Origin: Cymodocea nodosa
Taxonomy: Eukaryota > Streptophyta > Magnoliopsida > Alismatales > Cymodoceaceae
Reading direction: 5' to 3'
DNA length: 64,000 nt
NCBI GenBank assembly: GCA_036874045.1
Contig: CM072340.1
Span: 7,951,001-8,015,000 of the forward strand
In this document: piece after piece, positions 24,317-46,710 of the stretch
How positions within the stretch are numbered: the first letter of the stretch is position 1
Layout: the number at the start of each line of letters is the position of its first letter
Position numbers and translations under genes: made by a program
Notes under the pieces: model-generated
What the model saw: only the letters and a program-made list of their open reading frames with translations
Databases searched by the model: none
Told to the model about the DNA's origin: nothing

Positions 24317-25172
24317 TGTTAGGACTTAATGGCTTACTAGAGGGGGGGTGAATGGTAATATTTTTGTTTCTTAACAGTGAATGACTAATAAACAGTTTAA
24401 TTTAACAAGCACACAATGAAAGAAACTAATGCATATAGAGATTTTAGGTGGTTCACCACTAACGGCTAGTCCACCCCCAAGGGATACTTGGGCTTCACTA
24501 ATATTTCAAGACTTACAAACACTTACTTTAAGGTCAAAGCAAGAACCAACCAATCGAGTTGAGCTTTCTAGTTGTAGCTCCAACCAACCTATCTCTGAAG
24601 TTTTTAGTTGGTGCACTTCAGTAAACCACTTGCTTGAAGAAATCAGAGTTTATTCTGTGGAGAGCTTCTAGACTTGAGTTTGCATTTGCTGAAGATTTGA
24701 TCTTGATGACTTTCTACTGTATGCGTTAAGCTTGGTGTATAGATTCGTATATGCAAAAGCTATTTATCTTTCTTGTCTGCTTATTATATTTATACCATAA
24801 GCATAACAATCATATTCACCTCTAATAGATGTATTTTGCTGTACCTACTGAATTTGTAGAACCAAATATGGTAAGTTACTGTTTAGGAAGGTGTTTCAAG
24901 ATAACCTTCTGATTTCCTTTAACTTTCAGATGGTTAGCTGTGTAACACTCTGAAGAATGCTTGTAACTTACTAATAATCCACTTAAGTCCTTTTGCCACG
25001 TGAGATTTTAAGTTGTACACATGAGGTGTTGTATTGTTGTGAAAAGTTAAATCATAAACTTGTTTATATAGCAGTGCTAGAAAACTTGTTTAATTTGTTT
25101 TTATGCTTATATAAATAATTACTTTTAGAAGTAAACAAACAACTTTTCACACAAATTAGATATTAAATCCCA
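24317..25172 (-). repeat. 5' LTR of element D (right boundary uncertain)
   Basis: It starts TGTTAGGACTTAATGG beside the primer site, with the AGAGGGGGGGTGAATGG block also seen in the Sirevirus-like LTRs. It carries CTTTCAGATGGTTA-type motifs and ends before the TGTATTTTTAACTGC start of the gypsy LTR. No second copy exists in the window, so the far end is only estimated. The 24429-24671 stretch that can be translated lies inside it and is not a gene. Confidence 0.65.
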
Positions 25173-25174
25173 TT

Positions 25175-27049
25175 TGTATTTTTAACTGCAAGTGCACAAT
25201 GTATATTGTATTTGTGTGCAAGTACAGGTCAATCCCATAGAGATTGAGTAAGAATTGTGTACTGTTTCAATTTTTATATTGGAGTTTATATGTATTCAGT
25301 TAAGCACTCCATTGAGTTACAATTAACTCAATGGACTTAGTTCGTGGAGTTATGGCTAACTCAACAAACTAAACTCGTGGACTTAAGTTAACTCCACGAG
25401 CCTACCTTTCCCGTTAAATACTACTATTTACAGAGGAATTTGGCCAACTATTGGGCTGTTCCATAGAATGTAAATAACATCAATTCAGCTCTTTAATATT
25501 AGTTAATATTAGATTTATCATTAAGCAACACTAACATTCAGATATTTCAAACAGTAACCATTAAAATTTTTAAGTATCTGGAATGAATCAATTATAGTAA
25601 ACAATAAAATTATTTTCTATTTTCTAAATCAAACAAACATAAAAACATCTATAATACTGATAATGATAACATTAATCATGATACAAAACAAACAATATGA
25701 CACTTTAATACTAAATGTAAACATAGATAATTTGTGATTTTTGGTATTTTGTTTTGATATGTTCTTGAAGATGAGTGAAAGGTGAAATGTAAAAATCTCT
25801 ATCGACAATAAAAACTTCCGTCACTACATGCGACATGATTACACCACTGAAAACTTAATCACTTGCAATCTTGCCTCCTTTCCCTATAGAATTGCAAACC
25901 AAGAATTGTAAGATGATCTCCTCTTCAGCATACTAGCATCAACCCAAAACCAAGGCTAGAAGTTTTACGATCTCCTAAGATATGAGTCGGTGCTTGGTGA
26001 AAATGGCTTCCCTTCTCGCAATGCGATCACTCATTACAATGGTTGTTAGTCACCGTGTTTGGCTTAGAATCGACCCAACATCAGTAAAGTATCCTCACAG
26101 ACCTCCGATGGTTGGTGATTTGGTGGTGGTGTGGAGCTTCAGGGAACTTTCGATGCTTCCTACAGTTAGCGCAGTTCTCCACTCTGCACACACACTTTTC
26201 TTCATCTTTCTCCTCTTCTTTTATATTTCTTTCTATAGTAACTGCTTCTACTTAGATGATCAGTTGGATTTCCTTCATTCATATCAACGATGGTGATTTC
26301 TTCTTCATTCCATAAGTGAATTCCTGCGTGATACGTGCAATCGTGGTTTTCCTTCGAATTTCCTATTTCTACAACTACTATAGTGGCATATTAAAAAATA
26401 AATGGTCCTTGGAGTTACAGATAACTCAACGGACTTACTTCATTGATTTAACTATAAAACACATGCAATAAAGAAATAACTTATAAGCTACTAACACAAC
26501 GCATTACCTTAGTGTGTATTCAAGTAACTCAACGCATGTAGTTATGCTAACTTAATGAGTTATACATGTGCAGCTCACGTGACATAATAAAGTATTTAAA
26601 TTCAACACGTGCATAATTATAACTTAACGAGTTCAGATATTTCAGATACTTACAAACCTTAACTATCCGATGCTCAGATGCATTTCGAATAGTTAACAGA
26701 TAACTTACCAAAAATTCACTTAAGTCATGCATTACGATTTCAACATGTGTACTCTAAGAAATAATAAAATATTCTTTTAGCCTTTAAAGCATAACTATCC
26801 GGTACATGAAATATAACTCTCCAAAATAATAGAAAATTCGGATACTTAGGAATTAAAAAGCTACAACTTACCGATAGTTCAGAAATGTACTTAATTAACG
26901 TTAATTTCCTGAATTTATGCAGATTCTTTCATTAAAGCATATAACAGTGTAATTATAACATAATGGCTTAATTCTCATATGATAAACTAAATATTATGCA
27001 ATTAACCATCATTTAACCGTTAATATTATGCACTTTTTCATTCTAAAAA
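25175..27049 (-). repeat. LTR of gypsy unit G (left arm)
   Basis: About 1.87 kb with TG at 25175 and, on the other side, a polypurine tract at 27050. The right end reads CTAAAAA where the right arm implies CTAAACA. A TATA box (TATAAAAG read on the minus strand, about 26219-26226) divides it. The R/U5 side (25175-26190) is less AT-rich; its 25982-26296 reading frame is not a gene. U3 (26400-27049) holds GGAGTTACAGATAACTC-like and GGATAGTTA-type hairpins. 26490-26636 is homologous to U3 of the Sirevirus-like LTR. No intact second LTR of this family is in the window, so the ends are inferred. Confidence 0.65.
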
Positions 27050-29036
27050 CTTCCCCCATACTTAAATTTTACTAGTCCCTTAGTAAACTAAGATCTAACT
27101 AGTTGGTCTTTCTAATGTGCTAGAATTAATTCTTCATTTTGTATCTTCAAAATACATAAATTAGATTACTATATAGATATTCTATATTTTTCAGTAATCT
27201 ATTTAACATTGTTTTCTCTTCTTCATCCTGCAAATATATTTAAAACATATGTAAATTACATACAAAATATATTAGCATCATATATGTTCTAATTATATTA
27301 TCATCTTTTCTTTTTTTCAACATCTGTTATCTTGAGTTTTCTAATATGACTTCCAGAATAAATTTCAACTACATACGAATCAAAACACAATCTAATTCAA
27401 TATGATTAAAACAAGTAGAATAATGAATTGTATCTAAAATAAATAACTTCAAAAGTCTACTCTAGATTCATACTTCAATAATCTTAGATAACAGAAAATA
27501 TACTCGATTCAAAAGATATCTGTATTTCACAAAACACTTTTATCTTTTCAGAACAATATATGCATATTCGTACTTTAAAAATTAATTTGAAAAGCTTGAA
27601 TCATACAAGAGCTTTCTAATGTACCCATGTATTGAGCTTTCAGTCAACAATCCCATATCTTATCAGGATCTTAGGTTGCCAAATTTAAAGAGTCCTTTTT
27701 CAGGTCAACAATCCTTACATACCTATCTACTCAAGTACATAAGGCTTGTGATCAAACAAGTCAATAAACTCTCAAAGTTTTTCTCTTTTTTTTTTCTTTT
27801 CAACATAGTATATATGTAGTTCATTAATATAGATGTAATAAAACACAAATCTCATATAATCTTGCTTCTATTATTTACTGAAAATGTGAATCTATATCAA
27901 TAAGCTCATACTTTTTCTATAATTTAATAAGATTTACACATAAATCATTCTACAAGTTTAATCAATCAAATTAAATGTATCCTTGATCATATGTATTTCA
28001 TTTAATCCAAAAATCAACATTTCAGCTTTTTCAGGATTTCAGATCATTCACTGAGTTTCATTTTGATTTCTTTTTAAAATCATGAAATTGTTAAACTCAT
28101 AAAATTCAACAAAAACATAAGATACTATATCTAGATTTGTATTAATAGTAAAATTTTGTAGCATCTTATATAAGATTCTAAATATAACATTCAAGTAGTT
28201 ACAACTCTTAAAAATTTGACAGTCTCAATTATCGGCTAGTTACAAGAAATTTTGATTAGTTACAGCAAATTCATAAAAAAATTTCAATTTCCATAGAACT
28301 TTGCAACACCATTCTAATTCCTCTAATTAACAAAATTACTTGGCTTTTAATCTAATTACCTCCCCCCCATACCTACATTTTGCATTGTCCTCAATGTAAA
28401 AGATTTTACAGTAAATATTGTAATTGTTAGCAGGTATGAATATTGTTTCGTTGACTTAGCACCTAACTCAACGAACTTAATTCATTGAGTTAATGAATAA
28501 CTCCACGAACTGAGTTTAAATGTAAATTCAGGATAAGTAATCAATTACATACCTTGTTCTTTTGTATCTACTTCAACATCTTCTGACTTTTGATTCCGAA
28601 AAACTTTTCATTCATAAATAAAAGCAGAATATATAGCAAAATAACAAAACATACTTTGTTAATTTAGTGTCTTGTGTGGAACATAAGCTCATATGCCTTT
28701 GGTGGCTCACAAGCAAGCTAGTTGGTTTCCTAGAATAGATACCAACAAACTGGATTGATATTTTATTTGTTTTTCTTTTCTAAAAATAAATGCAGAGTGC
28801 ACACAACATTAAAAGTAGAAAATCACAATTTAAGAACATGATTGAAAAGTAGTGACAAATGAAATAAGTGTGTTAGTCCAAGCAAACTTTTTAGGCATAA
28901 TTATTCTTGCTATTAATTCTGTTTTAATGCAGTTTGCTTTCTTTTTTAACTTGTAAACTTGCAGTATGTTATCAATACTAAATATAAGTGTATTTCCATT
29001 AATGAATTGAAATGTAGAAAGGGATTCTTTTCTGTT
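27050..29036 (-). other. Non-coding 3' region of gypsy unit G, left arm
   Basis: The polypurine tract AAGTATGGGGGAAG (minus strand) lies at 27051-27064. A second polypurine-like AGGTATGGGGGGGAGG, after the AATGCAAAATGTAGG context common at gypsy 3' ends, lies at about 28359-28376. 27300-28200 is homologous to 7600-8640 of the copia block. An inverted-repeat cluster (CGTTGACTTAG, TAACTCAACGAA) is at 28446-28515. No gene. Confidence 0.65.
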
Positions 29037-29968
29037 TCAAGATAATGTAGTTGTTTCTATTTCTACATCTATTTCAATACATTCCTCTTCCCACTTCCAT
29101 TCATTTAAGTCTTTCATAATCCATATTTGAAATTTCATCATTTCATCCCACCGTCTTATCAGATATAAAGTAGGATCATCATATTCATTATACCACATTC
29201 CTAATTGAATTTTATCATATTCTACAAACGGTGGTTTAGCTATATCACTAGGTATACATAATATTTCTATAAAGTCATCATCATAATCATCTATGCTTAC
29301 TATGTATAAATCAGATCTAAATGCAATTGATATAGTTGACACTAAATATATATATCCATCAAGTATAACATGCATGTTGTTAATTAATGTTTTCTATCCT
29401 AGATATATCATAGTATTTTCATTCCAAGATCTATTTAGAAAGTTATACACACTTAGGCATAAATCCTCATCCTAATTTCTAGTTGGTCTCCAATAATACA
29501 ATTTTTCAGGAATTGTCGAATTTTTATTAGAAAATGTTAATGCTGACCCACAATTTTTAGTTGGTACATCAAATCTATTAAGCCTTCCTATATTCCATTC
29601 TTCTCCAGTGATAGGATTTCTAATCAAAATATCGGGTAATAGAATTGCATACCTTGGTTTGGTTCTATACATAATTAATCCTTCATCTATCCCCATAATA
29701 TGATCTATTCCTTCTAATGTATTGGGTGGAATTCTTGCAGTTTCTTCCATATTCGATATTCATAGCTTATTGAACTACGATTAAATGACTTCCATAAAAA
29801 TCCATATCTAATATTAGTCATTTTTGTAGCCTGTAGTCCATGAAAATATTTTTCTCTAACACAGTTTTTAATTTCTTTTGATGCACAACACGATCTACAC
29901 AAATCTTTAGTTGATAAGTTACTCAGTACTTCCCTTAGTGCATCCTATGGTAATTTCATCAATTCCAT
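29037..29968 (-). pseudogene. F-box protein gene carried by gypsy unit G, left arm
   Basis: F-box proteins are substrate receptors of SCF ubiquitin ligases. This copy starts MELMKLP (29968), has a TAG two residues into the box, then DALREVLSNLSTKDLCRSCC and ASKEIKNCVREKYFHGL. A C-terminal substrate-type region follows with LLPDILIRNPITGEEWNIG, LDGYIYLVSTISIAFRSDLY, DDDFIEILCIPSDIA and WIMKDLNEWKWEEE, the layout of plant F-box-associated domains. Breaks: a frameshift near 29750, TAG at 29472-29474 (present in the right arm too), a TAG-type break near 29390, and a TGA at 29037-29039. It lies 219 bp downstream of the gag stop on the same strand. Confidence 0.8.
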
Positions 29969-30187
29969 TTGTTGTGATTCTGTATAACATAAACAAAAAT
30001 TTAACAAAGATAAAATTAACATAGCTACTTACTTACCCTTGTGGAGTTAGGTCATAACTCAACGGACTAAGTTTGTTGAGTTAAGTAATAACTCTACGAT
30101 ATTACTAACTATAATTAAACTTACATTTTTTTCTTTTTATATTTTTCTACTTACTATATTATACATAGTTACTTTAGTTATACTACT
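29969..30187 (-). promoter_or_regulatory. Inverted-repeat cluster upstream of the F-box gene, left arm
   Basis: TAACTCAACGGAC and GTTGAGTTAAGTAATAACTC at 30048-30100. A conserved GTTTATGTTATACAG, a possible 3' splice site, lies about 13 bases before the F-box ATG. Confidence 0.45.
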
Positions 30188-31536
30188 TCATTCAGCTTCC
30201 CTCCCATAGGAGGTATCAATTTCATTAACAATTCTATTGATAGGGTTAGGTACTACTTGCATTGGTAGTCCTCCAGTAGATCTAACTTCTATTGATTTCT
30301 TCTGTCTAAGGGATATATTTCTATTCATATTTTGATTTTGAATGGTAGCATTTTCAAATACATGATCTAGACGATTGTTTAATTGTTGAATTATCTTCTC
30401 TAACTTCTCTATTCTAGATCCTTGTTCAATTAATGCTTCATAACTTATATTTTTGTTGTTTATATTTTCTCCTCCTTGGAAATTGTTATTTCTCCAAGAT
30501 AGGTTTGGGTGATTTCTCCAATTACGATTATAAGAATTTCCAAAGTTATCCTTCTGGTTTCTAGCATAAATAATATCTAAATCATTAATGTTTGCATTCT
30601 TTTCTGCTAGTCTTTGATTTAATGATAACTCTTCTATTTTCTTTGTTAATTTAGTTAATTTAACTTTAAGCATAGTGCTTGAATCTATTTCATGCATTCC
30701 CCTTGGCAATATTCTTTTATTTGTAATAGCTTCAACCGAGTTTTCCCATTGTGCATTTCTTTTTGCAAAGTTTTCTAAGTATGCCCATGCTTCTTCACTA
30801 CATAGTTTTAAAAATCCATTCTAACAAGTAGATTCTAATAAAGATTTAGTTGAAACATTTATGCCTTCATAAATTATACCTATTAATTGTGATTTACTCG
30901 TTGCATGATGTGGACATTGAGTTAGTAAATCTTTAAATCTTTCAAAATATTTCCAGAATGATTCTTCCTATTTTTGGCTACACATTAATATTTCCTTTTT
31001 CTTTTTAATCGTTTGATGTGTTGGATAATATTTTTCCAAACAAATAAAGCAAAATTTAGTCCTTGCAGAAATTGAATTAGGCAACAAAGTATATAACCAT
31101 CTCCTAGATGTGTCTTTCAAAGTAAAAGGGATATATCTAAGTTTAATAGCATCAATACTCATGTTCGGCAATTTCATCATTTGACAAACTTCGTTAAATT
31201 CCCTAAGGAAATAATAGACATCTTCTCTTTCTAATCCATGAAAGTATGGCAATTGACTAATATAATTAGATTTCAGTTCAAACCTATCTCCCTCAAAGTT
31301 TGGCAATTGAATACATGAAGGTTCATCAACTAGTTCAGGATATAGAATTTTCCCTAATGATTTTTCTAGTGGAGTAGTCATATCTTCGTTCTCCTTCAAA
31401 GAAAGGTTAACTACACCCCTAAGGATTTCGTTAAAGTCCAATTCAGAAAATATTTCAGTATGCCTCTATGTTGAATAATTCTATGTAAGTGTTCTTACTA
31501 ATCGTTTAGTGCTGGGAGAATGAATCTATGTGCTCA
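30188..31536 (-). pseudogene. gag: Gypsy gag, left arm
   Basis: Capsid-type protein of a Ty3/gypsy element. It starts at an ATG at 31536 followed at once by a TAG, then SPSTKRLVRT and TEIFSELDFNEILRGVVNLS. The Retrotrans_gag core follows: CIQLPNFEGDRFELKSNYI, DAIKLRYIPFTLKDTSRRWL, LEKYYPTHQTIKKKKEILM. Beyond a break at 30968 (TAG) it continues FWKYFERFKDLLTQCPHH to EEAWAYLENFAKR and a tail with ARNQKDNFGNSYNRNW and a short coiled coil (RIEKLEKIIQQLNNRLDHVF). It ends TSYGREAE at a TGA (30188-30190) conserved in the right arm. I see no CCHC knuckle. No protease or RT follows. Confidence 0.85.
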
Positions 31537-34209: not shown

Positions 34210-35850
34210 TTAGTCATTTTTCCTAAGTTCATCTACTTCCTTCTAGAGCTTTTCTAATTGTTGTTCTAATTGATTTATCTATTCAACAACTTCTATAATG
34301 TCTCGAGAAGGTCCAGATATCTCAGCAACTGCAGCATTGTAATTTCTATATTCCTTCACTGAAATGGCTCTAGATCTTATCCTTTTGAATGTCCATTTCG
34401 TGAAGTCAATACTATCCACCATTAGTAGTGGAATCAAATCTCCATAAAATAGTTTCTTCTTTGTTGCTCTCAACTTGGAGATAAAAATTTTGTACCAATT
34501 AATTTGAATTCTGTTCACAACTACATATGTGGCCCATTTAACAAACTGACTTAGTTCAACATCATGGCCTTGTCGTTGGTAGACATTTTTAACTAAAATG
34601 TTTACCACCATGTGTGCTTTTCCATTTAAATACTTTAGTCTGTTCAATAATGGCACACTAGGGTTGATGGCCAAACATTGCTTAATTGCTTATTCTGTCC
34701 ATTCAATTGCAGTTGTATTTTTCAGGATTTCAATACCATCATTTTTCAATCCAAAAATGTTGTGAAGAAGCTCTAGCGTTATCTATACATCAGCTTGCTC
34801 CACGTTAGAAATTAAATGTCCTTCTTCCTCTCTCAAGTTTACATAAAAACAGGGCACTAGATTTTCATATACAACATGCCCTTTCTATTGAGAAATAAAT
34901 TGTAATAGACCCTAGAACTCAAATAATTCTTTAATTTCCTACATACCGTCCTAATTTACTGGTCTACTATATATAATATCATACACCTTTATCTCTTGAT
35001 ATTTGTTATATGCTTCCTAACTCCAAAAGTGAACTTCATTTAGAATAGTAGCTTCAACTAAGTCAGGAATCTGAATTTATTGCTCCAAAGGGGTTTGTTC
35101 TTGAATTTCTTCTTCAATATGCTGAACTTGAATTTGTTGGAAATGATCCAGAGATTCTTGCATTCTTATTTCTACTTTTGTCTATGGTGGAGAGCCGGCA
35201 AAACTCTCTACTCTTCTTTCTTGAATTCTTTCAAAAATTTGCTGAAGTGTCTCTCCCTCTTTAGTGGAATCTGTCGAGATATTTCCTTCTTGTTCCTGGT
35301 GCTTTTGTTCAGCTTCTTGTTTAGTTTCTTCTCTTTCTTCTTCCTCCTGACTACCAATCTGCATTGTCATTGTTCTTTCTGATTTTATGGTAGATTGGGA
35401 TGGAGTCACGGGCAAATCAGCTTCTACCCTAATTTCAGTTTCTTACGTTTGTACAGGCTGCAGACTAATTTCAACCTGTTTTCCTTCTTCTCTTTGCTCT
35501 TGCTACTGCTACTCCTACTCCTCATATTCGAATAGCAAGCTAACAAAAATGGGCTCTTTAGACCCTACTAATATTTTAAGCTTAAGTTTAATCTCTATAG
35601 GAGCTTCAAGCACTATCTATTTTCCTTTCCTTCTTCTCAATAGCTGTACTTGGTCTTCCTCTTCCTCCTTTGAGATTAAATCTACAAAAATAGGCTCTAT
35701 AGGCCCTTGAGCCACTGGTACTGGCTCTTCTTGTTTTACTCGTTCTATAATTACTAGTCTCGAAGGATTAGCTTCAGTTTCTTTTGCAGCCATTGATCTA
35801 GCTACTTCCTGATGTTTTATCTTGTATGCCATTCTTCTAATTCTAGTAGG
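34210..35850 (-). pseudogene. aORF of gypsy unit G, left arm
   Basis: Homologue of the right-arm aORF (37980-39605) and, more distantly, of the copia aORF. It has an acidic/Gln-rich N-terminal part with [20 protein letters not shown] and a [12 protein letters not shown] segment that is partly repeated. The domain part has IKELFEF (then TAG) GLLQFISQ, LKYLNGKAHMVVNILVKNVYQ, RQGHDVELSQFVKWATYVV, VNRIQINWYKIFISKLRA and KKLFYGDLIPLLM, and it ends at a TAA (34210-34212). Stops are nearly all TAG, several shared with the right arm. Its 5' end is fused in frame to integrase at about 35850. Function unknown. Confidence 0.75.
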
Positions 35851-36266
35851 ATTTACTACTTTTTCTAAGATTAACTTAATTTGTTTGTTTGCACTTTCTA
35901 CTTGTCCACTTGTTTGCGAATGATATGATGTTGTAATTTTATAATTTACTCCATATTTCTTCATTAAGGCTTCAAAACTTCTATTACAGAAATGAGTTCC
36001 TCTATCACTAATAATAGCTTTAGGTATTCTAAATCTAGCAATTATATTAGTTCTTATAAAATGTATTACCACTTTGTTGTCATTAGTTTTTGTAGGAATA
36101 ACTTTTATCCATTTAGATACATAATCCACCCCCAACAATATATAATTAAATTGATTAGACATAGGAAATGGACCCATAAAATCTATTCCCCACACATCAA
36201 AGATTTCAACCTCAACAATAGGATTTAGAGGCATCATATTCCTCTTTCATATTCTTCCTATCTTTT
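35851..36266 (-). pseudogene. pol: Gypsy integrase core, left arm, fused to the aORF
   Basis: The catalytic core is present: D in [12 protein letters not shown] in [11 protein letters not shown] in [10 protein letters not shown]. After [11 protein letters not shown] it runs directly in frame into aORF sequence ([17 protein letters not shown]), so a deletion of about 1.3 kb relative to the right arm removed the integrase C-terminus and the aORF leader. The zinc finger part is missing: sequence upstream of [10 protein letters not shown] ends at the centre of the inverted repeat. Confidence 0.85.
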
Positions 36267-36296
36267 AGTGATATGATGAACCATTCTAGAGCAATA
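36241..36296. other. Centre of the large inverted repeat
   Basis: 56 bp separate the mirror-image MMPL(N/S)[12 protein letters not shown] coding starts. 36241-36266 is still integrase of the left arm (AGGAAGAATATGAAAGAGG read on the minus strand, matching 63548-63572). About 36267-36296 is unique. Confidence 0.75.
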
Positions 36297-37253
36297 TGAT
36301 GCCTCTTAGTCCTATTGTTGAAGTTGAAATCTTTGATGTGTGGGGAATAGATTTTATGGGTCTATTTCCTATATCTAATCAATTTAATTATATATTATTG
36401 GGGGTGGATTATGTATCTAAATGGATAGAAGCTATTCCTACAAAAACTAATGACAACAAAGTGGTAATACAGTTTATAAGAACTAATATAATTGCTAGAT
36501 TTGGAATACCTAAAGCTATTATTAGTGATAGAGGAACTCATTTCTGTAATAGAAGTTTTAAAGCCTTAATGAAGAAATATGGAGTAAAACACAAAATTGC
36601 AACATCATATCACCCACAAACAAGTGGACAAGTAGAAAGTGCAAACAAACAAATTAAGTTAATTTTAGAAAAAGTAGTAAATCCTACAAGAAAAGATTAG
36701 GCTAATAGATTAATAGATGCACTTTAAGCTTATAGAACTGCTTATACAACAAGCTTAAGTATGTCACCTTTTAGGCTAGTATATGGAAAAAGCTATCATT
36801 TACCTGCTGAAATTGAACATAAATCTTATTGGGCATTAAAAACTCTAAACACTAATTTAAATCAAGCTGCTGAAAACAAGAAAATGCAATTAATTGAATT
36901 AGAATAATTTAGGAATGAAGCTTATTCAAAAACTGTAAGAGAAAAAGAGAAAATGAAGTTCTGGCATGACAAGAAAATTATTCCAAAAACTTTGAAATCA
37001 GACAAGAAATATATCTTTACATGACTAGACTCTATAACCATTTAGGAAAATTAAGATCTAGATCGGTAGAACCTTATATAATTCGAAATATTTATTCTTA
37101 TGAGCTATTGAAATTGAAAATCCTAAAAATCAAAACATATTTAAAGTAAATGGACAAAGACTTAAACCTATTCTGAAAATTCCAACAAGTTCCTTTGGAA
37201 CTACAGAAGAAGTAAGAGTAGAGGACTACTCGAACTTTACTTAGTAAGAAATT
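36297..37253 (+). pseudogene. pol: Gypsy integrase, right arm
   Basis: Ty3/gypsy integrase from [17 protein letters not shown] to the C-terminus. The DDE residues are visible: D in [12 protein letters not shown] in [11 protein letters not shown] in GQVESANKQ. Downstream are AYRTAYTTSLSMTPF, LVYGKSYHLPAEIEHKSYWAL and EKEKMKFWHDKKI. The zinc-binding N-terminus is missing because the arm starts here. Stops: TAG at 36698-36700 (TGG in copy J), TAA near 36726 (TGG), TAA near 36905 (GAA), and later shifts. Confidence 0.85.
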
Positions 37254-37979
37254 TTCTAAGTATATACTAAAAAAAAAAAAAAAAAAAAAACTTAGTAGAA
37301 GTTAGTCACGGTTCAACTGAAAGAAATTATCGGTTTGACTGAAACATATATTAAAAGAAAAAAAATTGTTGCGGTTCAACCGACAAGATCCATTGGTCAA
37401 ATCAGAACATAAAAATATAAAAAAATCTATGCATTATATTAAGTAAAAATGTTGATGTTACCGAAGATAGTGTTGGTTTTATCAGAAAAAGAAGAAGAAG
37501 AAGAAGATATTTAATTTCGATTCGATCAAGGAATATAATGGTTTGACCAAAATTCTAAAATGTTGAATTAATTAAGAGTTGGTTAGACCAAAATTTCTTC
37601 GATCTTGATCGAGGTAAATTATTATTATAAGTATTTTTATTAGTTATAAATTTACAGAAAGTCTATTGAGTTATGCTTAACTCAACGAACTTACTCCATT
37701 AAGTCTAGGATAAGTCAACGAGCTTACTCCGTTGAGTTAACTATAACTCAACGAAGTATTGTAGTTAAGACCACGAACTTAGTCTGTAGAGTTAACCCTA
37801 ATTCCACGAAGCAGTAAGAGAGAGAGCAAGAGTTTGCATGGGAGAATGACCCGATTACCCGTTTAAAACTTAGGGCTTATTTATACTAAAACTTAGATTT
37901 GAGGGCATTATCTGTAGAATCATTTAGAACTTAGAATAGTAGAGATCAGAGCGATTTCATTTCGTTCCATTACTCCACA
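37254..37979 (+). promoter_or_regulatory. Spacer between integrase and aORF with poly(A), GGTTCAACCG motifs and promoter-like end
   Basis: Contains a 22-base A run (about 37270-37290); an array of short motifs such as CGGTTCAAC, CGGTTTGAC and GGTTTGACC (37304-37600); a GAA microsatellite (37485-37507); an inverted-repeat cluster TTAACTCAACGA / CGTTGAGTTA (37658-37808); and a TATA-like TATTTATA (37878-37885) about 95 bp before the aORF ATG. No gene. Confidence 0.5.
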
Positions 37980-39605
37980 ATGACAAAGATGACACCAGAA
38001 TTCTAGGAGGACGTAGTTGACATGATAGAATTTCTCAAAGAATCGGAAGAATGGCACATAAGGTAGAAGATCAGAAATATAACAGGAGAAAAAGAACTAC
38101 AAAAGGTAGAATCTGACCTTTTCTACTAGAGAAAGATTTTAGTAGATTTAATCTCAGAAGAAGAAGAGAAAGATTAGGCACAGTTAATTAGAAGAAGGAA
38201 AGGAAAAGAGATAATGCGTAAACATCAAGAAGAGATTAAACCTGAGCCAAAAATATCAATAGGGCCTATAGAGCCAATTTTTGTAGACCTGCTATTTGAA
38301 TCTGAGGATGAGCAGCAACAGCAGCAGCAAGAGCAAAGAGAAGAAGAAAAATAGGCTGAAACTAATCTGCAGCCTATACAAACAGAAAGAACAGAAATTA
38401 GGGTAGAAGCTGATTTGCCCATGACTCCATCCCAATCTACCACTAAATCAGAAAGAACAATGCAGATTGGTAGTCAGGAGGAAAAAGACGAAGAAGAAAC
38501 TGAACAAGAAGCAGAATAAGAGTATATTGAACAAACAGGAAATATCTCGACAGATTCCACTAAGGAGTATGAGACTCTTCAACAAATTTTAGAAGGAATT
38601 CAAGAGAGAGTGGAGAGTTCTACCAGCTCTCCACCACAGACAGAAGCAGAAGCAAAAAGGCTGGAATCTCCGGGTCATTTTCAACAAAGTCAAGTTCAGC
38701 ACATAGAAGAGGAAATTCAAGAACAAACCCCTCTAGAGCAACAAATGCAAATTCCTGATCCATCTGAAGCTACCATTCTAAATGAAGTACACTTTTGGAG
38801 TCAGGAAGCGTATAATAAATATCAAGAGATGAAGGGGTATAATATTATTTACAGTAGACAAGTAAACTAGGATGATATGCAAGAAATTAAAGACTTATTT
38901 GAATTCTAGGGTCTATTGCAATTTATTTCTCAATAGAGAGGGCATGCAGTGTATGAAAATCTAGTGCCCTGCTTTTATACCAATTTGAGAGAAGGAGAAA
39001 GTGGATTATTTTCCAACATGGAGCAAGTTGATGTACAGATAACACTAGAGCTTCTCAATAATACTTTCAGGCTGAGAAATGAAGGAATAGAAATTCTAGA
39101 AAGCACAACTGTAGTGGAATGGGTTGAACAGGAAATTAAACAATGCATAGCCATCGACCCTAGTGTGTCATTACTGAACAAATTGAAGTACTTAAATGGA
39201 AAGGCACACGTGGTTCCAACCATACTGGTAAAAGCTATTTATCAAAGACAAGACCACGACATTGAACTTAGTCAATTTGTCAAGTGGGCCACATATGTAG
39301 TTGTGAATAAGATTCAAGTTAATTAGTCTTCAGTTTTTATCTCCAAATGGAGAGTAGTAAAGAAGAAATTATTTTATGGAGATCTGATTCCACTACTGAT
39401 GGTGGATAGTATTGATTTCACGAAATGGACATCCAAAAGGATAAGATCAAGAGCTATTTCAATGAAAGAATATAGAAATTATGCTGCTGCTGAGATATTT
39501 ATACCTTCTAGAGGCATTACAGGAGCTGTAGAGAGGATAAATCAATTAGAGCAATAATTAGAAAAACTTCAGAAGGAAGTAGATGAACTTAGGAAAAAGG
39601 ACTAA
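37980..39605 (+). pseudogene. aORF of gypsy unit G, right arm
   Basis: 541 codons from ATG (37980) to TAA (39603) in one frame with no indel, but with eleven internal stops, nine TAG and two TAA. N-terminal half: acidic and Gln-rich ([28 protein letters not shown]). C-terminal half: NEVHFWSQEAYNKYQEMKG, EIKDLFEF, LRNEGIEI, LKYLNGKAHVVPTILVKAIY, FVKWATYVVVNKIQVN, KKLFYGDLIPLLMVDS, SRAISMKEYRNY, and a short coiled-coil end (INQLEQ, LEKLQKEVDELRKK). Block order matches the aORF of the copia elements (NSIHFRSEEALQKYY, DLFEFQG, NRIQINWF, SKLFYGD). It resembles the plant-transposon-protein domain; activity unknown. No membrane segment seen. Confidence 0.75.
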
Positions 39606-40614
39606 TTGTATTGTTCGTCTACTTATACTTGTATTAAAAATATTTGGCTGATTGTAAATGTAAATTATTCATATTAATGAATGTTTGAATTTCAGATGTT
39701 TTTTTGTTTTTACATTCGTGTTTGAGAATGTTTGAACAGCAAGATGATTCTGAATTAATGTTTGTTAATGAATGATATACATATTTAAAGCATTACAAGA
39801 CTGTTTAAAAGATTTACAAATTTTATGAATGACATGGTTAAATGCACGATAATTGGTTAATGCTTGAATATATCTACATGCTTGAATATATCTGCAAAGT
39901 AAAATGTAAATTCTACATAACAGGAAATGAACTGTAAGTTAAATATGCATATAATGTTCAAATTTAAAGGAGTTTTAATTAGAAACTGCATTATGACATG
40001 TAGCTAACTTTAATTAAGTTGACAATGTAGGAGAGAGAAATGTATAGAAGTTAAAATGGAGAGTGAGTATTAGAAAAATTTTGCTAAGTGTTAACTCAAC
40101 GAACTTAGTCTGTTGAGTTACACTTAACTCCACAAGGTCAATATTAATATATAGGTCACTCCGTTGAGTTATCTGTAACTCAACGAAGTTAGTCCATGGA
40201 GTTAGAAATAGTAACCTAAGCTAGTCCATTGAGTTAAAAGTAACTCAACGAGGTTAGTTCGTAGATTAAGTTGAATGATTATTCTTTTAGCCATGAACGA
40301 AACTTCATGGGATTAGCGGTTACTGAAATTTGAAATTAGAGGTGAACAAGTAACCATAAAAATAGGAACCACGCTGCACGTTACAAGACACGTTCTTGCA
40401 ACGAGATTCATTTGCTTTATGGACGTGCATTATAAATATAGAACAAAATGTTATTTACGAGTTACCAGCACTTGAGGAAAGAAAAACATTTCATTGGGGA
40501 ACTAGAGGAGAAGCAGTTGATTCAACTTCATCCGTCAACAACCATTTACTAAAAACAAAGTATCAGACTGGTATGTAATTAATCTTCTGCTATTTTACTT
40601 TATGTTAAGAATTT
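39606..40614 (+). promoter_or_regulatory. Promoter-like spacer before gypsy gag, right arm
   Basis: AT-rich with no gene to 40080. Then inverted repeats (GTTAACTCAACGAAC, CGTTGAGTTATCTGTAACTC, GTTAGTCCATGGAGTTA) to 40270, and a TATAAATA box at 40431-40438, 177 bp before the gag ATG. Cluster, box and distance are conserved in the left arm. Confidence 0.55.
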
Positions 40615-41954
40615 ATGAGTACATGTATTCGTTCTCCTAGCACTAAACGATTAGTAAGAACACCTACATATGATTATTCAACACAGAGGCATACTGAAAT
40701 ATTTTCTGAATTGAATTTTAACGAAATCCTTAGGGGTGTAGCTAACCTTTCTTTAAAAGAGAACGAAAATATGGCTGCTCCAGTAGAAAAACCATAGGGG
40801 AAATTTTGTATCCTGAATTAGTTGATAAACCTTCATGTATTCGATTGCCAAACTTTGAGGGAGATAGGTTTGAACTGAAATCTAATTATATTAGTCAATT
40901 GCCACACTTTCCTAGATTAGAAAGAGAAGATGCCTATTATTTCCTTAGAGAATTTAATGAAGTTTGTTAGATGATGAAAATGTCGAACATGAGTATGGAT
41001 GCTATTAAACTTAGATATATCCCTTTTGCTTTAAAAGACAAAGCTAAGAGATGGTTATATACTCTATCGCCCGATTCAATTTCTGCATGGACTAAATTTT
41101 ACTCTGTTTTTCTGAAAAAATATTATCCAACACATCAAATGATTAGAAAGAAAAAAGAAATATTAATGTGTAGCCAAAAATAGAGAGAATCATTTTGGAA
41201 ATATTTTGAAAGATTTACTGACTCAATGTCTATATCATGCAATGAGTAAAGCACAACTAATAGGTATAATTTATGAAGGCATAGATGTTTCAACGAAATC
41301 TTTATTAGAATCTACTTGTTAGAATGGATTTTTAAAACTATGTAGTGAAGAAGCATGGGCATATTTAGAAAACTTTGCAAAAAGAACTACACAGTGGGAA
41401 AATTCGGCTGAAGCTATTACAGATAAAAGAAATTACCAAGGGGAATGCATGAAATAGATTCAAGCACTATGCTTGAACTTAAATTAAATGAATTAACAAA
41501 GAAAATAGAAGAGTTATCATTAAATCAAAAACTAGCAAAAAAGAATGCAAGCATTCATGATTTAGATACTATTTATGCTAGATACTAGAAAGATAACTTT
41601 GGAAATTCTTATAATCCTAATTGGAGAAATCACCCAAATCTATCTTGAAGAAACAACAATTTCCAAGGAGGAGAAAATATAAATGAAAAAAATATAAGTT
41701 ATGAAGCATTAATTGAACAAGGATCTAGAATAGAGAAGTTAGAAAAGATAATTCAACAATTAAACAATCGTCTAGATCTAGTATTTGGAAATGCTGCCAT
41801 TCAAAATCAAATTTTGAATAGAAATATACCCCTTAGATAGAAGGAATCAATGGAAAGTAGACTTATGGGAGGATTGCCAATGCAAGCAATACCTAACCCT
41901 GTCAACAAAACTATTAATGAAATTGATACCTCCTATGGGAGGGAAGCTGAATGA
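40615..41954 (+). pseudogene. gag: Gypsy gag, right arm
   Basis: It starts MSTCIRSPSTKRLVRTPTYD (40615) and is colinear with 30188-31536. A one-base loss gives a TAG at 40795-40797. Further stops: TAG near 40968 (CAA in the left arm), TAG at 41586-41588 and near 41839 (both CAG in the left arm), TGA near 41647 (TGG). The core DAIKLRYIPFALKDKAKRWL and KKYYPTHQMIRKKKEILM is kept, as is the SYGREAE end at the conserved TGA. It sits between the aORF and the F-box gene, with no protease or RT beside it. Confidence 0.85.
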
Positions 41955-42176
41955 AGCATTATAACTAAAGTAACTATGTATAATATAGTAAGTAGAAAAA
42001 AATATAAAAAGAAAAAAATGTAAGTTTAATTGTAGTTAGTAATATCGTAGAGTTATTACTTAACTCAACGAACTTAGGCCGTTGAGTTATGACCTAACTC
42101 CATGAGGGTAAATAAGTAGCTATGATTGATTTTATCTCTATTAAATTTTTGTTTATGTTATACAGAATCACAACAA
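41955..42176 (+). promoter_or_regulatory. Inverted-repeat cluster upstream of the F-box gene, right arm
   Basis: GAGTTATTACTTAACTC and CGTTGAGTTATGACCTAACTC-like repeats at 42047-42111. A conserved TTTATGTTATACAG just before the ATG could be a 3' splice acceptor. Confidence 0.45.
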
Positions 42177-43292
42177 ATGAAATTGATGAAATTACCACTA
42201 GATGCACTAAGGGAAGTATTGAGTAACCTGTTAGCTAAAGATTTGTGCAAATTATGTTGTGTATCAAAGGAAATTAAAGATTGTGTCAAAGAAAAATATT
42301 TTCATGGACTACAAGCTACAAAAATGACTAAGATTAGAGATAGATTTTTAGGGAAGTCATTTAATCGTAGTTCAATCAGCTTTGAATATTTAAATATGGA
42401 AGAAAATGTTGGAATTCCACCCCATACATTAGAAGAAATAGATCATATTATGAGGATAGATGAAGGATTAATTATTTACAGAATAAAACCAAGGCATGCA
42501 ATTCTGTTACCCGATATTTTGATTAGAAATCCTATCACTAGTGAAGAATGGAATAAAGGAAGGCCTAATAGATTTGAAGTGCCAACTGAAAATTGTGGGT
42601 CAACATTAACATTTTCTGATAAAAATTTAACCATTCCTGAAAAATTGTATTACTAGAGACCAACTGGAAATTAGGATGAAGATTTCTGCCTAAGTGTGTA
42701 TAATTTTCTAAATAGATCTTGGACTGAAAATATTATGATATATCTAGGACAGAAAGCATTAATTAACAACATTCATGTCCTACTTGATGGATATATATAT
42801 CTAGTCTCAGATATATCAATTACATTTAGATCTGATTTATACATAGTAAGCATAGATAGTTATGATGATGACTTTATAGAAATATTACCTATACCTAGTT
42901 AGATAGCTAAACCACCATCTATAGAACATGATAAAATTCAATTAGGAATGTGGTATAATGAATATGATGATCCTACTTTATGTCTGATAAGATGGTGGGA
43001 TGAATTGATGAAATTTCAAATATGGATTATAAAAGACCTAAATGAATGGAAGTGAGAAGAGGAATATATAGAAATATATGTAGAAGTAGAAACAACTACA
43101 TTATCTACATTTCAATTCATTAATGGAAATACATTGATATTTATTATTGATAACATACTGCAAGTTTACAAATTAAAAAAGAAAGCAGACTGTATTAAAA
43201 TAGAATTAATAGCAAGAAGTATTATGCCTAAAAAGTTTGCTTGGACTGACACGTTTATTCTATTTGTCACTACTTTTCAATCATGTTCTTAA
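42177..43292 (+). pseudogene. F-box protein gene carried by gypsy unit G, right arm
   Basis: A single 371-codon frame from ATG (42177) to TAA (43290) with no indel, broken only by TAG at 42654, 42672 and 42900 and TGA at 43053. The F-box is at residues ~3-40: LMKLPLDALREVLSNLLAKD then LCKLCCVSKEIKDC. C-terminal region: HAILLPDILIRNPITSEEW, NIHVLLDGYIYLVSDISI, DLYIVSIDSYDDDFIEILPI, IQLGMWYNEYDDPTLCLIRW, WIIKDLNEWK, the spacing of a plant F-box-associated substrate-binding region. Known role of the family: SCF ubiquitin ligase receptor. At 42654 and 43053 the left arm still has TGG. Present at the same place in both arms, so it was part of the unit before the arms formed. Confidence 0.85.
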
Positions 43293-45154
43293 AGTGTGAT
43301 TCTATGCTTTTATTGTTGTGTGTAATCTACATTTAATTTTTAGAAAAAAGAAACTTTAGTTATGTTTTATTTTATTTACTAGAAAAAAAAACACAAAATA
43401 TCAATCTAGTTTGTTGGTATCTATTCTAGGAAACCAACTAGCTTGCTTGTGAGCCACCAAAGGCATAGGAGCCTGGGTTCCACACAACACACTGAATTAA
43501 CAATATCTGTTTTGTTGTTAAGTGTTATTTTGTTATATATTTTGCTTTTATGTGTGAATGAAAAGTTTTTCAGATTCAAAAGTCAGAAAATATGGAGAGA
43601 GATACAAAAGAACAAGGTATATACTTGATTACTTATCCTGAATTTACATTTCAACTCAATTCATGGAGTTATTCATTAACTCAACGAATTAAGTTCGTTG
43701 AATTAGGTGCTAAGTCAATGAAATAATATTCATGCCTACTACCATTTACTATATTTACTGTAAAATCTTTTACATTGAGGACAATGCAAAATGCAGGTAT
43801 AGGGGGGAGGTAATTAGGTTAGCAGCCAAGTAATTTTGTTAATTAGAGGAATTAGAATGGTGCTACAAATTCCTATGGAAATTGAAATTTTTTTTTATGA
43901 ATTTGCTATAACTTACTGAAAGTTCTTGTAACTATCTGATAATTGAAACTGTCAAAAAAAAATTTTAGCACTATAACTGCTTGAATGTTATATTTGGAAT
44001 CTTATATAATATGCTACAAATTTTACCATTAATACAGATCTGATATAGTATCTTATGTTTTTGCTGAATTTTATGAGTTTAACAATTTCACAATTTTAAA
44101 GAAGAAATGAGATGTTTAACTGAAACTTGGTAAGTGATCTAAATTCTTGAAAGAGCTGAAATGTTGATTTTCAGATTAAATGAAATACATATGATCGATG
44201 ATACATTTAATTTGATTGATTAAACTTGTAGAATGATTTATGTGTAGATCTTATTAAACTACAGAAAAAGTATGAGCTTATTGATATGGATTCATATTTT
44301 CGGTAAATAATAGAAGCAAGACCATACGAGATTTATGTTTTATTGCATTTATATTAATGAAATACATATATATACTATGTTGAAAAGAAAAAAAAAGAGG
44401 AAAAAAAGAGAAAAACTTTGAGAGTTTATTGACTTGTTTGATCACGAGCCTTTTGTACTTGAGCAGATAGGTATGTAAAGATTGTTGACCTAAAAAAGGA
44501 CTCTTTAAATCTGGCAACCTAAGATCTTGATCAAATATAAGATTATTGACTGAAAGCTCGATACATGGGTACATTAGAAAGCTTTTCTATGATTCAAGAT
44601 TTTTAAATTAACTTTTAAAGTACAAACATACATATATTGTTCTGAAAAGATAGAAGTGTTTTGTGAAATATAGATATCTTTTGAATCGAGTATATTTTTT
44701 GTTATCTAGGATTACTAAAGTATGAATCTAGTATAGGCTTTTGAAGTTGTTTATTTGAGATTCAATTCATTATTCTACTTGTTTTAATCATATTAAGTTA
44801 GATTGTGTTTTGATTTGTATGTAGTTGAAATTTATTCTAGAAATCATATTTGAACAATTCAGGATAATAGACGGTTGAGAGAAAAAAATGTTAATATAAT
44901 TACCACCTATATGATGCTAATATATTTTGTATATGATTTACATATGTCTTAGAAATATATTTGCAGGATTAAGAGGAGAAAACAATGTTAAACAGATTAC
45001 TAGAAAATACAGAATATCTTTACATTAATCTAATCTATGTATTCTAAATATACAAAAAGAAGAATTAATTCTAGCACTGTAGAAAGACCAACTAGTTAGA
45101 TCTTAGTAGTTTGCTAAGGGACTAGCAAAATTTAAGTATGGGGGAAGTGTTTAG
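43293..45154 (+). other. Non-coding 3' region of gypsy unit G, right arm
   Basis: Inverted-repeat cluster at 43661-43728. Polypurine-like AGGTATAGGGGGGAGG at about 43796-43810, after TTGAGGACAATGCAAAATGC, a context usual at gypsy 3' ends. 43990-45010 is homologous to 52300-53400 of element E. Polypurine tract AAGTATGGGGGAAG at 45134-45147, then TGTTTAG of the LTR. No gene; a minus-strand translatable stretch at 44278-44574 is not one. Confidence 0.65.
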
Positions 45155-46710
45155 TGTTGAGTATTTTGTTTTGATGATGTGTGCTGAATGAAAACAATCA
45201 TATTTGCTCAATTACTATTGCTTGTGAAAAGAAATTAAAATCATCAATTAATACAGAAAAAGCTTACTGACATAAATACTTGTCTGTATTGGATCTGAAG
45301 TTAATAACTAGTCATTTCGTTGCATTAATTTCTCATTTAACTAAACGTTAAGTTAACGTGTGTTTTTATTGAAAAGCATGATATGTTTTAAAGTTATATC
45401 TTCTGTATCATGAATAGTGCACGTTTAGATAACTCGGTAAGTTAGAGTTTTGTTTGTATAGAGGTCATGTGAGAACTCGTTAAGTTAGTGAGTAAAAGAA
45501 GAGACGAACATGTTAAGTTAGTGTTATACACGTGGTGAAATTATAAGTTACAAATGTTGTATTGTATCACGTGAGGTGCACATGTTTAACTCGGTAAGTT
45601 AGCATATCTAAACGCGTTGAGTTGCTACATTGAATACTAAGGCAACGCGTTAGGTTAGCGTTATAAACTTAAGTTGTTATTTTTGCACATGGTAAAATTC
45701 TTATTATAAAAACATTTGTTTATTGCTGAATCAGTGAGTTAAAGCTTTTCGGAGACTTACAACCATAACTATCCAAAACTTAAACTATTTTTGGTGAGTT
45801 ATCGTTTAACCTTTCGAAAGAAAGGTTAAGCTGGTTCGTTGAGTTAGCGTAACACCACAGACTCAGTTCATTGAGTTAGCTATAGTCCTTGTCACGTGAA
45901 ATGGCACATTAGGAACTCGTTAAGTTAGAAACGTTAAGTTATATATACTTGTGTTACTCATTTAGTTAACATTAAAGTAACGACTTCTTATTACACTTGA
46001 TGGAAAAAAATTTTGGACGAGAAAGTTTATTTTACAAGAAATTTTTCAGAGATCCAGGATTGATGATTAAAGAAAAGACGTGAAGAAGTGGAAAACTGGT
46101 AGTGGTTAAACGTGGAGGATATGCATGAAATGAAGATATAGTATAAAAGGCATAGAGTTCTCGTTGATCAAACAATCATTGCACACAAAAAGAAAAATCT
46201 TTTCAAGGATCCAACTATCCCTACACACAAAAAGAAAAAATATTTTTTAGGAATCAAAAACACCTCTTCGGGGAAAATCTCTCAAGTGGAAGAAAATTCA
46301 GTGAAGCAAAAAAAGGTATTATTTATGTCACTAAAGATTTAAAGTATCAGAAGAAAGCAAATTCGGTGAAGTAGAGAAAGACAAGATATTCGTCACTGAA
46401 GAATTGTTGAAGAAGAAAAAGAAGAAGAAGAAGAAAGATCTCGAATAAGGAGAAATGTTTTAAATTCCGCAAATTAGTTTTCTCTATTTGTAGTTATGAA
46501 ATTGTTTAGAAGATACATGGTATCGAGTTATAATGCATCTACAATTTCTGAGGAGAATTGAATTGTATATTGTAATTGAAACCTTGAATAAAAATGATTT
46601 TATGAAAACAATGTCTCGACTTGTTTTTGAGTTTTAAAGTTTCAATTATATTTCAGAAAATATTGAAAAACACAATTCACCCCCCTCTTGTGTAGCCATA
46701 CGATCCTACA
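45155..46710 (+). repeat. 5' LTR of element E
   Basis: 1556 bp, TGTTGAGTATTTTG ... CGATCCTACA. TATAAAAGG at 46142-46150, poly(A) signal AATAAA at 46587-46592. U3 has CACGTG boxes (for example 45529 and 45569) alternating with AACTCGTTAAGTTA units, plus the CTTTCGAAAGAAAGG hairpin. It lacks a ~60-bp U3 unit present in other copies. Confidence 0.9.

What the first reader, a model, noticed from the sequence alone, without database searches (positions are those of the whole stretch)
42177..43292. F-box protein gene embedded in a Ty3/gypsy unit, present in both arms
A 371-codon F-box plus F-box-associated reading frame lies about 220 bp after gypsy gag and before the polypurine tract and LTR, at the same place in both inverted arms (29037-29968 and 42177-43292). 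It was therefore part of the mobile unit before the arms formed. The right copy has four nonsense changes and no indel. Capture of an SCF ubiquitin-ligase receptor by an LTR retrotransposon could interfere with host protein turnover; that is inference.
Basis: partly seen in the sequence, partly recalled or inferred. Interest (0 to 1): 0.85.

Follow-up and report, generated by a model that had tools for sequence, protein, structure and literature searches.

The report
Jumping gene carrying its own F-box
A large, many-copy plant retrotransposon carries its own gene for an F-box protein, the kind of part that tells a cell which proteins to destroy; the gene sits in the same place in the copies tested and looks as though selection kept it working while the element was spreading.

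Summary
The F-box frame at 42177-43292 is one copy of a gene that belongs to a dispersed Ty3/gypsy-type element in this 374.6-Mb plant genome. 15 of 15 gag places chosen without regard to the F-box have it at the same offset. The two arms are different copies (separate clades), not one local duplication. The family frame is 379 codons; all 41 aligned copies carry internal stops, but longer open frames exist elsewhere. Variants shared between copies are depleted in amino-acid changes (omega 0.60; 0.40 without C>T/G>A; 0.19 in the F-box domain). Private variants (0.95), shifted frames and nine noncoding controls look neutral. The gene was therefore under purifying selection in the active lineage, about as strongly as gag, and decayed after insertion. 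The element is about 17 kb and oddly ordered: 5'LTR-protease-RT-RNaseH-integrase-extra ORF-gag-F-box-PPT-3'LTR, so gag lies behind integrase. Likely role (inferred): an SCF substrate receptor directed at a host protein, perhaps a silencing factor. No host donor gene was identified; target and expression are unknown. This is a new variant of the known 'gypsy with extra ORF' kind.

The parts
42177..43292 (+). F-box + F-box-associated gene, right-arm copy (4 nonsense codons, 24-bp in-frame deletion against the 1140-bp family length)
28830..29968 (-). F-box gene, left-arm copy (1139 bp; 1-bp deletion; nonsense at codons 8, 166, 192, 311)
40746..41954 (+). gag of the right arm (interrupted; start uncertain); the homologous frame in copy L017 matches Pfam Retrotrans_gag
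30188..31465 (-). gag of the left arm (interrupted)
36288..36945 (+). integrase part of the right arm (rve), upstream of gag
35840..36261 (-). integrase part of the left arm (rve)
36262..36287 (.). junction of the two head-to-head arms; breakpoints 16 bp apart in integrase (L029 8026 and 8042)
37980..39557 (+). extra ORF region between integrase and gag (charged; sub-threshold Transposase_32 similarity)
40092..40250 (+). cluster of CGTTGAGTTA inverted motifs upstream of gag
40431..40438 (+). TATAAATA, strongly conserved in 16 copies: candidate internal promoter of gag/F-box (inference)
42046..42089 (+). CGTTGAGTTA motifs between gag and F-box
45140..45147 (+). polypurine tract of the right arm; its LTR starts at 45148 and is cut by a copia LTR at 45155
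27050..27058 (-). polypurine tract of the left arm (by eye)
25108..27049 (-). 3' LTR of the left-arm element (distal end approximate)

Best explanation
The F-box frame is a regular gene of a ~17-kb, high-copy Ty3/gypsy-type retrotransposon, not a host gene that an element happened to land beside. SHOWN: it is present at a fixed place (just behind gag, before the 3' polypurine tract and LTR) in the copies tested; its family frame is 379 codons; older, shared variation is depleted in amino-acid changes while variation private to single copies is neutral. INFERRED: while the element was active, it made an SCF substrate receptor: the N-terminal F-box docks on the host SKP1 and the C-terminal F-box-associated domain binds a target, which is ubiquitinated and removed to the element's benefit. 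The likeliest class of target is a host factor that limits retrotransposition (RNA silencing or DNA-methylation machinery), less likely the element's own Gag or Pol. gag and the F-box gene probably share a transcription unit of their own behind pol (conserved TATAAATA and motif cluster upstream of gag). Confidence refers to 'integral, selected element gene'; the SCF step I put at about 0.6 and a silencing-related target at about 0.25.
For: 40 scored matches of 87-100% over many contigs, out of 4597 first-look candidates. 15 of 15 gag places chosen without regard to the F-box carry it at the same offset. The left-arm element's sequence continues around the F-box in 20 of 20 fetched loci, in 10 of them without a break from gag start into the 3' LTR. 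One place followed from 5' LTR (L029, from about 2200) to 3' LTR (L017, to about 9540). Of 14 places with the element's 5' coding region, 7 show the element's 3' half in the right orientation about 10.4 kb on (L051, L054, L056, L059, L061, L063, L064), one of them the F-box itself. Selection, with a 12-class neutral spectrum from noncoding DNA of the same family: private variants omega 0.95 (p=0.62), shared 0.60 (p=1.9e-5), shared without C>T/G>A 0.40 (p=4.6e-7); frame shifted by 1: 0.92 and 1.03; by 2: 1.19 and 1.73; with 22 instead of 41 rows 0.51 and 0.34. By segment (shared, without C>T/G>A): F-box domain 0.19, codons 46-200 0.38, codons 201-379 0.52. gag behaves alike (0.50; 0.28). Nine noncoding frame controls: shared omega 0.66-1.13 (all), 0.63-1.86 (without C>T/G>A), lowest p 0.064. 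Domains: PF00646 7.6e-11 (over cut-off) and TIGR01640 F_box_assoc_1 9.4e-8 (below cut-off) in copy L037; TIGR01640 over its cut-off at C1:16441993, next to the verified gag/F-box place L071.
Against: All 41 aligned copies carry at least one nonsense codon (mean 3.4), so most F-box copies are dead now. Plain pairwise pN/pS does not separate the F-box (0.44) from its shifted frames (0.46, 0.60) or noncoding DNA (0.45-0.65), nor gag (0.49) from its shifted frames (0.40, 0.65); only the F-box domain stands out (0.195), so the selection case rests on the private/shared contrast. One shifted gag frame reached 0.70 (p=0.034) with C>T/G>A. One search stopped with an error after the F-box and gag rows; one search supplied the missing controls. 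A stop at codon 160 is in 27 of 41 copies, so either source elements already carried it or this codon is a mutation hot spot. C-terminal domain scores are mostly below curated cut-offs. 7 of 14 sampled 5' places did not show the element's 3' half at the expected distance. The AlphaFold model is unusable (pLDDT 37). No transcript, protein or SKP1-binding data.
Confidence: 0.85

Rival explanations
1. The F-box gene is a passive passenger: transduced once by a successful source element and copied along without benefit.
For: All 41 aligned copies carry internal stops; 27 of 41 share the stop at codon 160; the trees are star-like, so one burst could have spread a neutral passenger.
Against: Shared variants are constrained in frame (omega 0.40-0.60) and private ones are not; shifted frames and noncoding controls look neutral; gag shows the same pattern. 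F-box and FBA profile signals persist although no single-sequence relative is found.
Confidence: 0.1
2. The F-box product acts on the element's own proteins (for example limits Gag or Pol dosage), not on a host target.
For: It is paired with gag in 15 of 15 sampled places and may share gag's transcription unit.
Against: No data on any target; plant viruses that use F-box proteins aim them at host silencing (PMC6784205 abstract; PMC6593998 title and start of abstract).
Confidence: 0.2
3. An element inserted beside a host F-box gene, and both arms come from one local duplication.
For: The two copies lie in a local inverted arrangement with breakpoints 16 bp apart.
Against: Dispersed copies with the same context; the arms fall in different clades.
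Confidence: 0.01
4. The gag + F-box half is a separate non-autonomous (gag-only) element that nests again and again in, or fused once with, a pol-bearing element.
For: gag behind integrase is not the usual order; gag has its own upstream TATA-like box and motif cluster.
Against: The post-integrase region lies directly upstream of the gag half in 13 of 20 fetched loci and in L029/L017; the region upstream of gag is not detectably LTR-derived (71 of 500 shuffles reach its alignment score). A single old fusion remains possible and does not change the main claim.
Confidence: 0.2

Closest known systems
[quoted passage not shown] survey PMC6317226, passages)
   Same: Sense-strand extra gene between integrase and 3' LTR, present across a family; extra ORFs and long noncoding regions as in most OTA elements.
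   Different: Extra domains named in what I saw are env-like, plant mobile domain, Transposase_28, Athila ORF-1; 'F-box' occurs 0 times in PMC7264820. Here gag, too, lies behind integrase, whereas PMC6317226 gives GAG-PROT-RT-RH-INT as the gypsy order and says elements with unexpected order were removed as likely wrong predictions.
Phalaenopsis Ty3/gypsy elements with an AlkB m6A-demethylase ORF (PMC9289625, passages)
   Same: Giant gypsy element with a cellular-type enzyme ORF kept through several rounds of copying.
   Different: Domain is 2-ODD/AlkB; its screen of 121 angiosperm genomes found 15 unusual domains; 'F-box' occurs 0 times in its main text (supplements not seen).
Viral F-box silencing suppressors (crinivirus p22, PMC6784205, abstract; polerovirus P0, PMC6593998, listing)
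   Same: Mobile or viral genome codes for an F-box protein expected to enter host SCF.
   Different: No homology was tested or claimed; the element's protein has a plant-type F-box-associated C-terminus; no suppressor activity shown.
[quoted passage not shown]
   Same: Host-type coding sequence inside an LTR element.
   Different: [quoted passage not shown] here the gene is fixed in a high-copy family. 'F-box' occurs 0 times in the main text of PMC3726574.

Membership tests
Ty3/gypsy LTR retrotransposon | pol order RT, RNase H, integrase (integrase behind RT) | tested here: met
   L029/L031: RVT_1 and RT_RNaseH, then integrase by DNA match; rve over cut-off in the window's integrase frames, H2C2 + rve in a third copy at 62793-63917; protease only below cut-off
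Ty3/gypsy LTR retrotransposon | paired LTRs, PPT, PBS | tested here: met
   one LTR pair, about 9.4% diverged, PPT before the 3' LTR; PBS only by eye at L029 about 4240-4270 and not matched to a tRNA; no clear target-site duplication
Ty3/gypsy LTR retrotransposon | gag upstream of pol (the usual order, PMC6317226; usual rather than defining) | tested here: not met
   no gag domain in three frames between 5' LTR and protease of L029, the one copy tested; Retrotrans_gag lies downstream of integrase. I therefore call it gypsy-type by its pol and state the departure
Athila lineage of OTA gypsy elements | placement in an RT/integrase tree; no extra RNase H | not tested
   resemblance recalled only; no reference tree was built
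F-box protein | F-box domain over curated cut-off | tested here: met
   PF00646 34.5 and 41.9 bits against cut-off 20.5
F-box protein of the plant F-box-associated (FBA) type | F_box_assoc_1 / FBA domain over curated cut-off | tested here: inconclusive
   right arm FBA_1 16.8 bits (cut-off 21.1); L037 TIGR01640 31.7 (cut-off 37.9); 38 of 145 matches in the genome are marked over the cut-off (5 of them only with neighbours in the frame), one at a verified element place
SCF substrate receptor | binds SKP1; causes turnover of a target | not testable with these tools
   no assay; strongest constraint lies in the F-box domain
gene with a traceable host donor | closer host gene outside elements | tested here: inconclusive
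   no relative at E<=10 among 1070 candidates of the protein collection; host F-box genes could not be told from element copies

The most novel reading that the evidence does not exclude
A retrotransposon lineage that reordered its genome, with pol first and then a separate unit of gag plus an F-box gene driven by an internal promoter that shares a motif array with the LTRs, and that uses the F-box protein as an SCF receptor to destroy a host anti-transposon factor: a transposon counterpart of viral F-box silencing suppressors, and perhaps the reason for its large copy number.
Probability: 0.2. Interest if true: 0.92.

Novelty: new variant of a known kind. Interest (0 to 1): 0.74.

Why it matters
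Extra genes in plant retrotransposons are known, but their functions are mostly guesses. An F-box gene gives a directly testable one: does the product enter the plant's SCF ligase, and what does it remove? A high-copy family that carries an F-box gene would also inflate F-box gene counts in genome annotations. The gag-behind-integrase order, if it holds, breaks a rule that at least one large element survey used as a filter (PMC6317226).

Tried and rejected
Rejected: local duplication of the arms. Rejected: pairwise pN/pS as proof of selection; noncoding controls score alike, so I used the private/shared contrast with shifted-frame and noncoding controls. Rejected: open frames as evidence of selection; with 3.4 stops per copy on average some copies of a large family stay open by chance, and the five checked were chosen because they were open. 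Unproved: upstream-of-gag region as a fossil LTR. Led nowhere: solved-structure searches (0 matches), AlphaFold (pLDDT 36.9, not used for a fold search), homologues of the F-box (none). Host donor gene: not resolved. Species: not determined. Earlier selection runs used weaker controls; with C>T/G>A included, two noncoding frames also looked significant there (p=0.0009 and 0.0047), which is why I do not rely on them.

Full report
1. What is there. The window lies in a 374.6-Mb, 28-contig genome (G000:C12:7951001-8015000), by its elements a plant. It is full of nested LTR elements: copia elements towards both ends and, in the middle, two head-to-head pieces of a gypsy-type element. The F-box frame at 42177-43292 codes for 371 residues with four internal stops and matches Pfam F-box at 1.7e-8, above its cut-off, and FBA_1 at 0.0066, below its cut-off. 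The left copy runs 28830-29968 on the other strand.

2. It is a dispersed repeat with a fixed context. The right-arm F-box DNA has 40 scored matches at 87-100%, 39 of them over at least 1112 of 1116 bases, spread over many contigs, out of 4597 first-look candidates (the candidate number is unscored and only indicates a large family; gag gives 4224 and the 5' coding region 4927). I fetched 10 kb around 20 of the 39 other places. All 20 match the left arm's element around the F-box; in 10 of 20 one uninterrupted match runs from the start of gag into the 3' LTR (L009, L012, L013, L017, L021, L022, L024, L026, L027, L028); the others are truncated or interrupted. The converse sample: I took 15 of the 39 non-window places found with gag alone, a list that shares no place but the window's with the F-box list, and read 300 bp where the F-box should start: 15 of 15 have it, within about 60 bp of the expected position. 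Of 14 places with the element's 5' coding region (of 40 listed), sampled about 10.4 kb downstream, 7 hit the element's 3' half in the right orientation (L051, L054, L056, L059, L061, L063, L064), one of them in the F-box (L064); the other 7 show other repeats, the wrong orientation or nothing. With 41 aligned copies, these 15, L064 and five more, 62 F-box places are directly verified.

3. The arms are independent copies. A tree of 4.4 kb from 21 of 22 sequences (L010 was too short) puts the right arm with L011, L013, L015, L016 (100/100) and the left arm in a clade of nine in the other half of the tree (100/99); the F-box tree of 41 copies agrees (right arm in a clade of 13, 98/98, without the left arm). 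The trees are star-like, with median end branches of 0.043-0.048 and very short inner branches: a burst of copying. One LTR pair is about 9.4% diverged (K2P 0.108 over a stretch that includes some flank; 178 transitions, 28 transversions). With a rate of 1.3e-8 per site per year (recalled) both give roughly four million years.

4. Anatomy of the element. One place could be followed from 5' LTR (L029, from about 2200) to 3' LTR (L017, to about 9540), about 17 kb. Order: 5' LTR, a charged frame without known domain, protease-like (below cut-off), RT, RNase H, integrase, a charged extra ORF region with sub-threshold Transposase_32 similarity, a noncoding stretch, gag, F-box, about 1.8 kb noncoding with polypurine tract, 3' LTR. 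No gag domain was found between 5' LTR and protease in any of three frames of L029, the one copy tested, while Retrotrans_gag is found downstream of integrase (L017 1.1e-6, over its cut-off). Integrase-gag-F-box in one direction is seen in both window arms, L029/L017 and L031/L022. The survey PMC6317226 (passages seen) gives GAG-PROT-RT-RH-INT as the gypsy order and states that elements with unexpected order were removed as likely mispredictions, so such an element would have been filtered out there. I searched for print on this order with two queries: one search found no paper; one search listed two, of which I read passages of one (PMC1142308, gag-pol in the usual order) and not the other (PMC5718144). 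The library holds open-licence papers only.

5. Regulation (inference). A ten-base motif, CGTTGAGTTA, with at most one mismatch occurs 129 times in the window against 3.0 expected. In the element it lies in clusters in the LTR, between integrase and the extra ORF, upstream of gag, between gag and F-box, and behind the F-box; the copia LTRs carry it too. Upstream of gag a TATAAATA is strongly conserved in 16 copies, about 190 bp after the motif cluster in the three copies compared, and in L029 the LTR has a TATAAAA at a similar distance from its cluster (other LTRs there differ by some tens of bases). The rest of the two regions is not alike. A separate transcript for gag and F-box is therefore plausible, not shown. 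A splice-acceptor-like stretch precedes the F-box ATG (by eye).

6. Was the F-box gene under selection? All 41 aligned copies carry at least one nonsense codon before the end (mean 3.4) and on average 0.6 frame-shifting gaps. Simple pairwise pN/pS (0.44) is no lower than in a shifted frame (0.46) or in noncoding DNA (0.45-0.65), apart from the F-box domain (0.195, interval 0.11-0.34); gag fares no better (0.49 against 0.40 and 0.65). The informative contrast is between variants private to one copy (mostly after insertion) and variants shared by several (mostly in the active lineage). With a neutral 12-class spectrum from noncoding DNA of the loci fetched, private variants give omega 0.95 (p=0.62), shared ones 0.60 (p=1.9e-5), and 0.40 (p=4.6e-7) without C>T/G>A, which dominate recurrent change. 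Shifted frames: 0.92 and 1.19 (1.03 and 1.73 without C>T/G>A). With the 22 rows that also gave the spectrum: 0.51 and 0.34. gag: private 1.08, shared 0.50, 0.28 without C>T/G>A; one shifted gag frame reaches 0.70 (p=0.034) with C>T/G>A and 1.10 without. By segment, shared without C>T/G>A: F-box domain 0.19, codons 46-200 0.38, 201-379 0.52. Nine noncoding frame controls: shared omega 0.66-1.13 (all changes), 0.63-1.86 (without C>T/G>A), lowest p 0.064; for private variants one noncoding frame deviates, with an excess of N (p=0.0056). The test treats variants as independent. Shared variants include recurrent neutral mutations, which should make it conservative (inference).

7. Open frames and relatives. 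In a genome-wide F-box profile search 150 of 4219 candidates were scored; 11 of the 150 lie in open frames of 365 residues or more; I read 300 bp of five of these and all five are copies of this element's F-box (88.6-94.3%). So open copies exist; that is expected by chance in so large a family and proves no present function. The protein collection holds plants (the RT/RNase H frame finds Tanacetum, Prunus, Malus and others; identity 53-68% among the best 120), yet the F-box finds no relative at E<=0.001 (query with X at stops) or E<=10, within a search that needs shared five-residue words. Only profiles see it: PF00646 7.6e-11 and TIGR01640 9.4e-8 in copy L037. The acquisition is thus old, or the donor was already divergent (inference). 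Host F-box genes could not be separated from element copies.

8. How it probably works. From established knowledge of F-box proteins: the F-box binds SKP1 and the C-terminal part selects a substrate. That the F-box domain is the most constrained part fits this. An element gains if the substrate limits its copying; plant viruses use F-box proteins against silencing (PMC6784205, abstract; PMC6593998 and, for a host F-box protein that regulates AGO1, PMC2914764, seen in the listing). This last step is analogy, not test.

9. Known or new. [quoted passage not shown] PMC6317226 passages), and a cellular enzyme kept in a giant gypsy element is known (PMC9289625 passages). 'F-box' does not occur in the main texts of PMC7264820, PMC9289625 or PMC3726574. 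Searches listed no paper whose listing describes an F-box gene as part of an LTR element family; the listings were capped (12 of 23 and 10 of 17 shown), and of the listed papers I opened only PMC9289625 and PMC8764390 for this question. PMC8764390 reports single LTR-associated F-box retrogenes in Thlaspi (passages), a different thing. I file this as a new variant of a known kind.

Noticed in passing
window 25300-26630, 28449-28507, 30055-32129, 37678-37753, 40092-40250, 42046-42089, 43677-43705; copia LTRs at 3.5-4.1, 13.0-13.6, 18.5-19.0, 32.7-33.4, 45.3-45.9, 56.8-57.6 kb: CGTTGAGTTA (up to one mismatch) 129 times against 3.0 expected, in LTRs of gypsy and copia elements and before the gypsy element's inner genes: perhaps a host transcription-factor site (MYB-like, recalled) that several element families exploit.
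   Followed up: partly
27227-27998, 44183-44853 versus 7610-8401, 52533-53204, 58815-59529: About 700 bp just before the gypsy element's 3' polypurine tract is 78-80% alike to a stretch downstream of RT in the window's copia elements: shared 3' sequence between two superfamilies.
   Followed up: no
36262-36287: Head-to-head junction of two different element copies, broken within 16 bp of each other in integrase; origin unexplained.
   Followed up: partly
45148-45155: A copia LTR begins 7 bp into the right arm's gypsy 3' LTR.
   Followed up: no
42654-42656 (codon 160 of the family frame): A stop at this codon in 27 of 41 copies: shared by descent or a deamination hot spot.
   Followed up: partly
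L019 and L020 (C7:12000973 and C7:9393686): Two F-box copies on one contig are almost identical: probably a recent segmental duplication, not a fresh insertion.
   Followed up: no
L030 6675-10000: A polypurine-tract region and LTR followed within about 100 bp by the post-integrase region of the element: a deletion or tandem derivative without pol.
   Followed up: no
53830-55911 and 60185-61885: Long open frames without convincing Pfam match (five scanned; one weak Transposase_32 hit, 0.045) downstream of RT in the copia elements: extra ORFs of the copia family.
   Followed up: no
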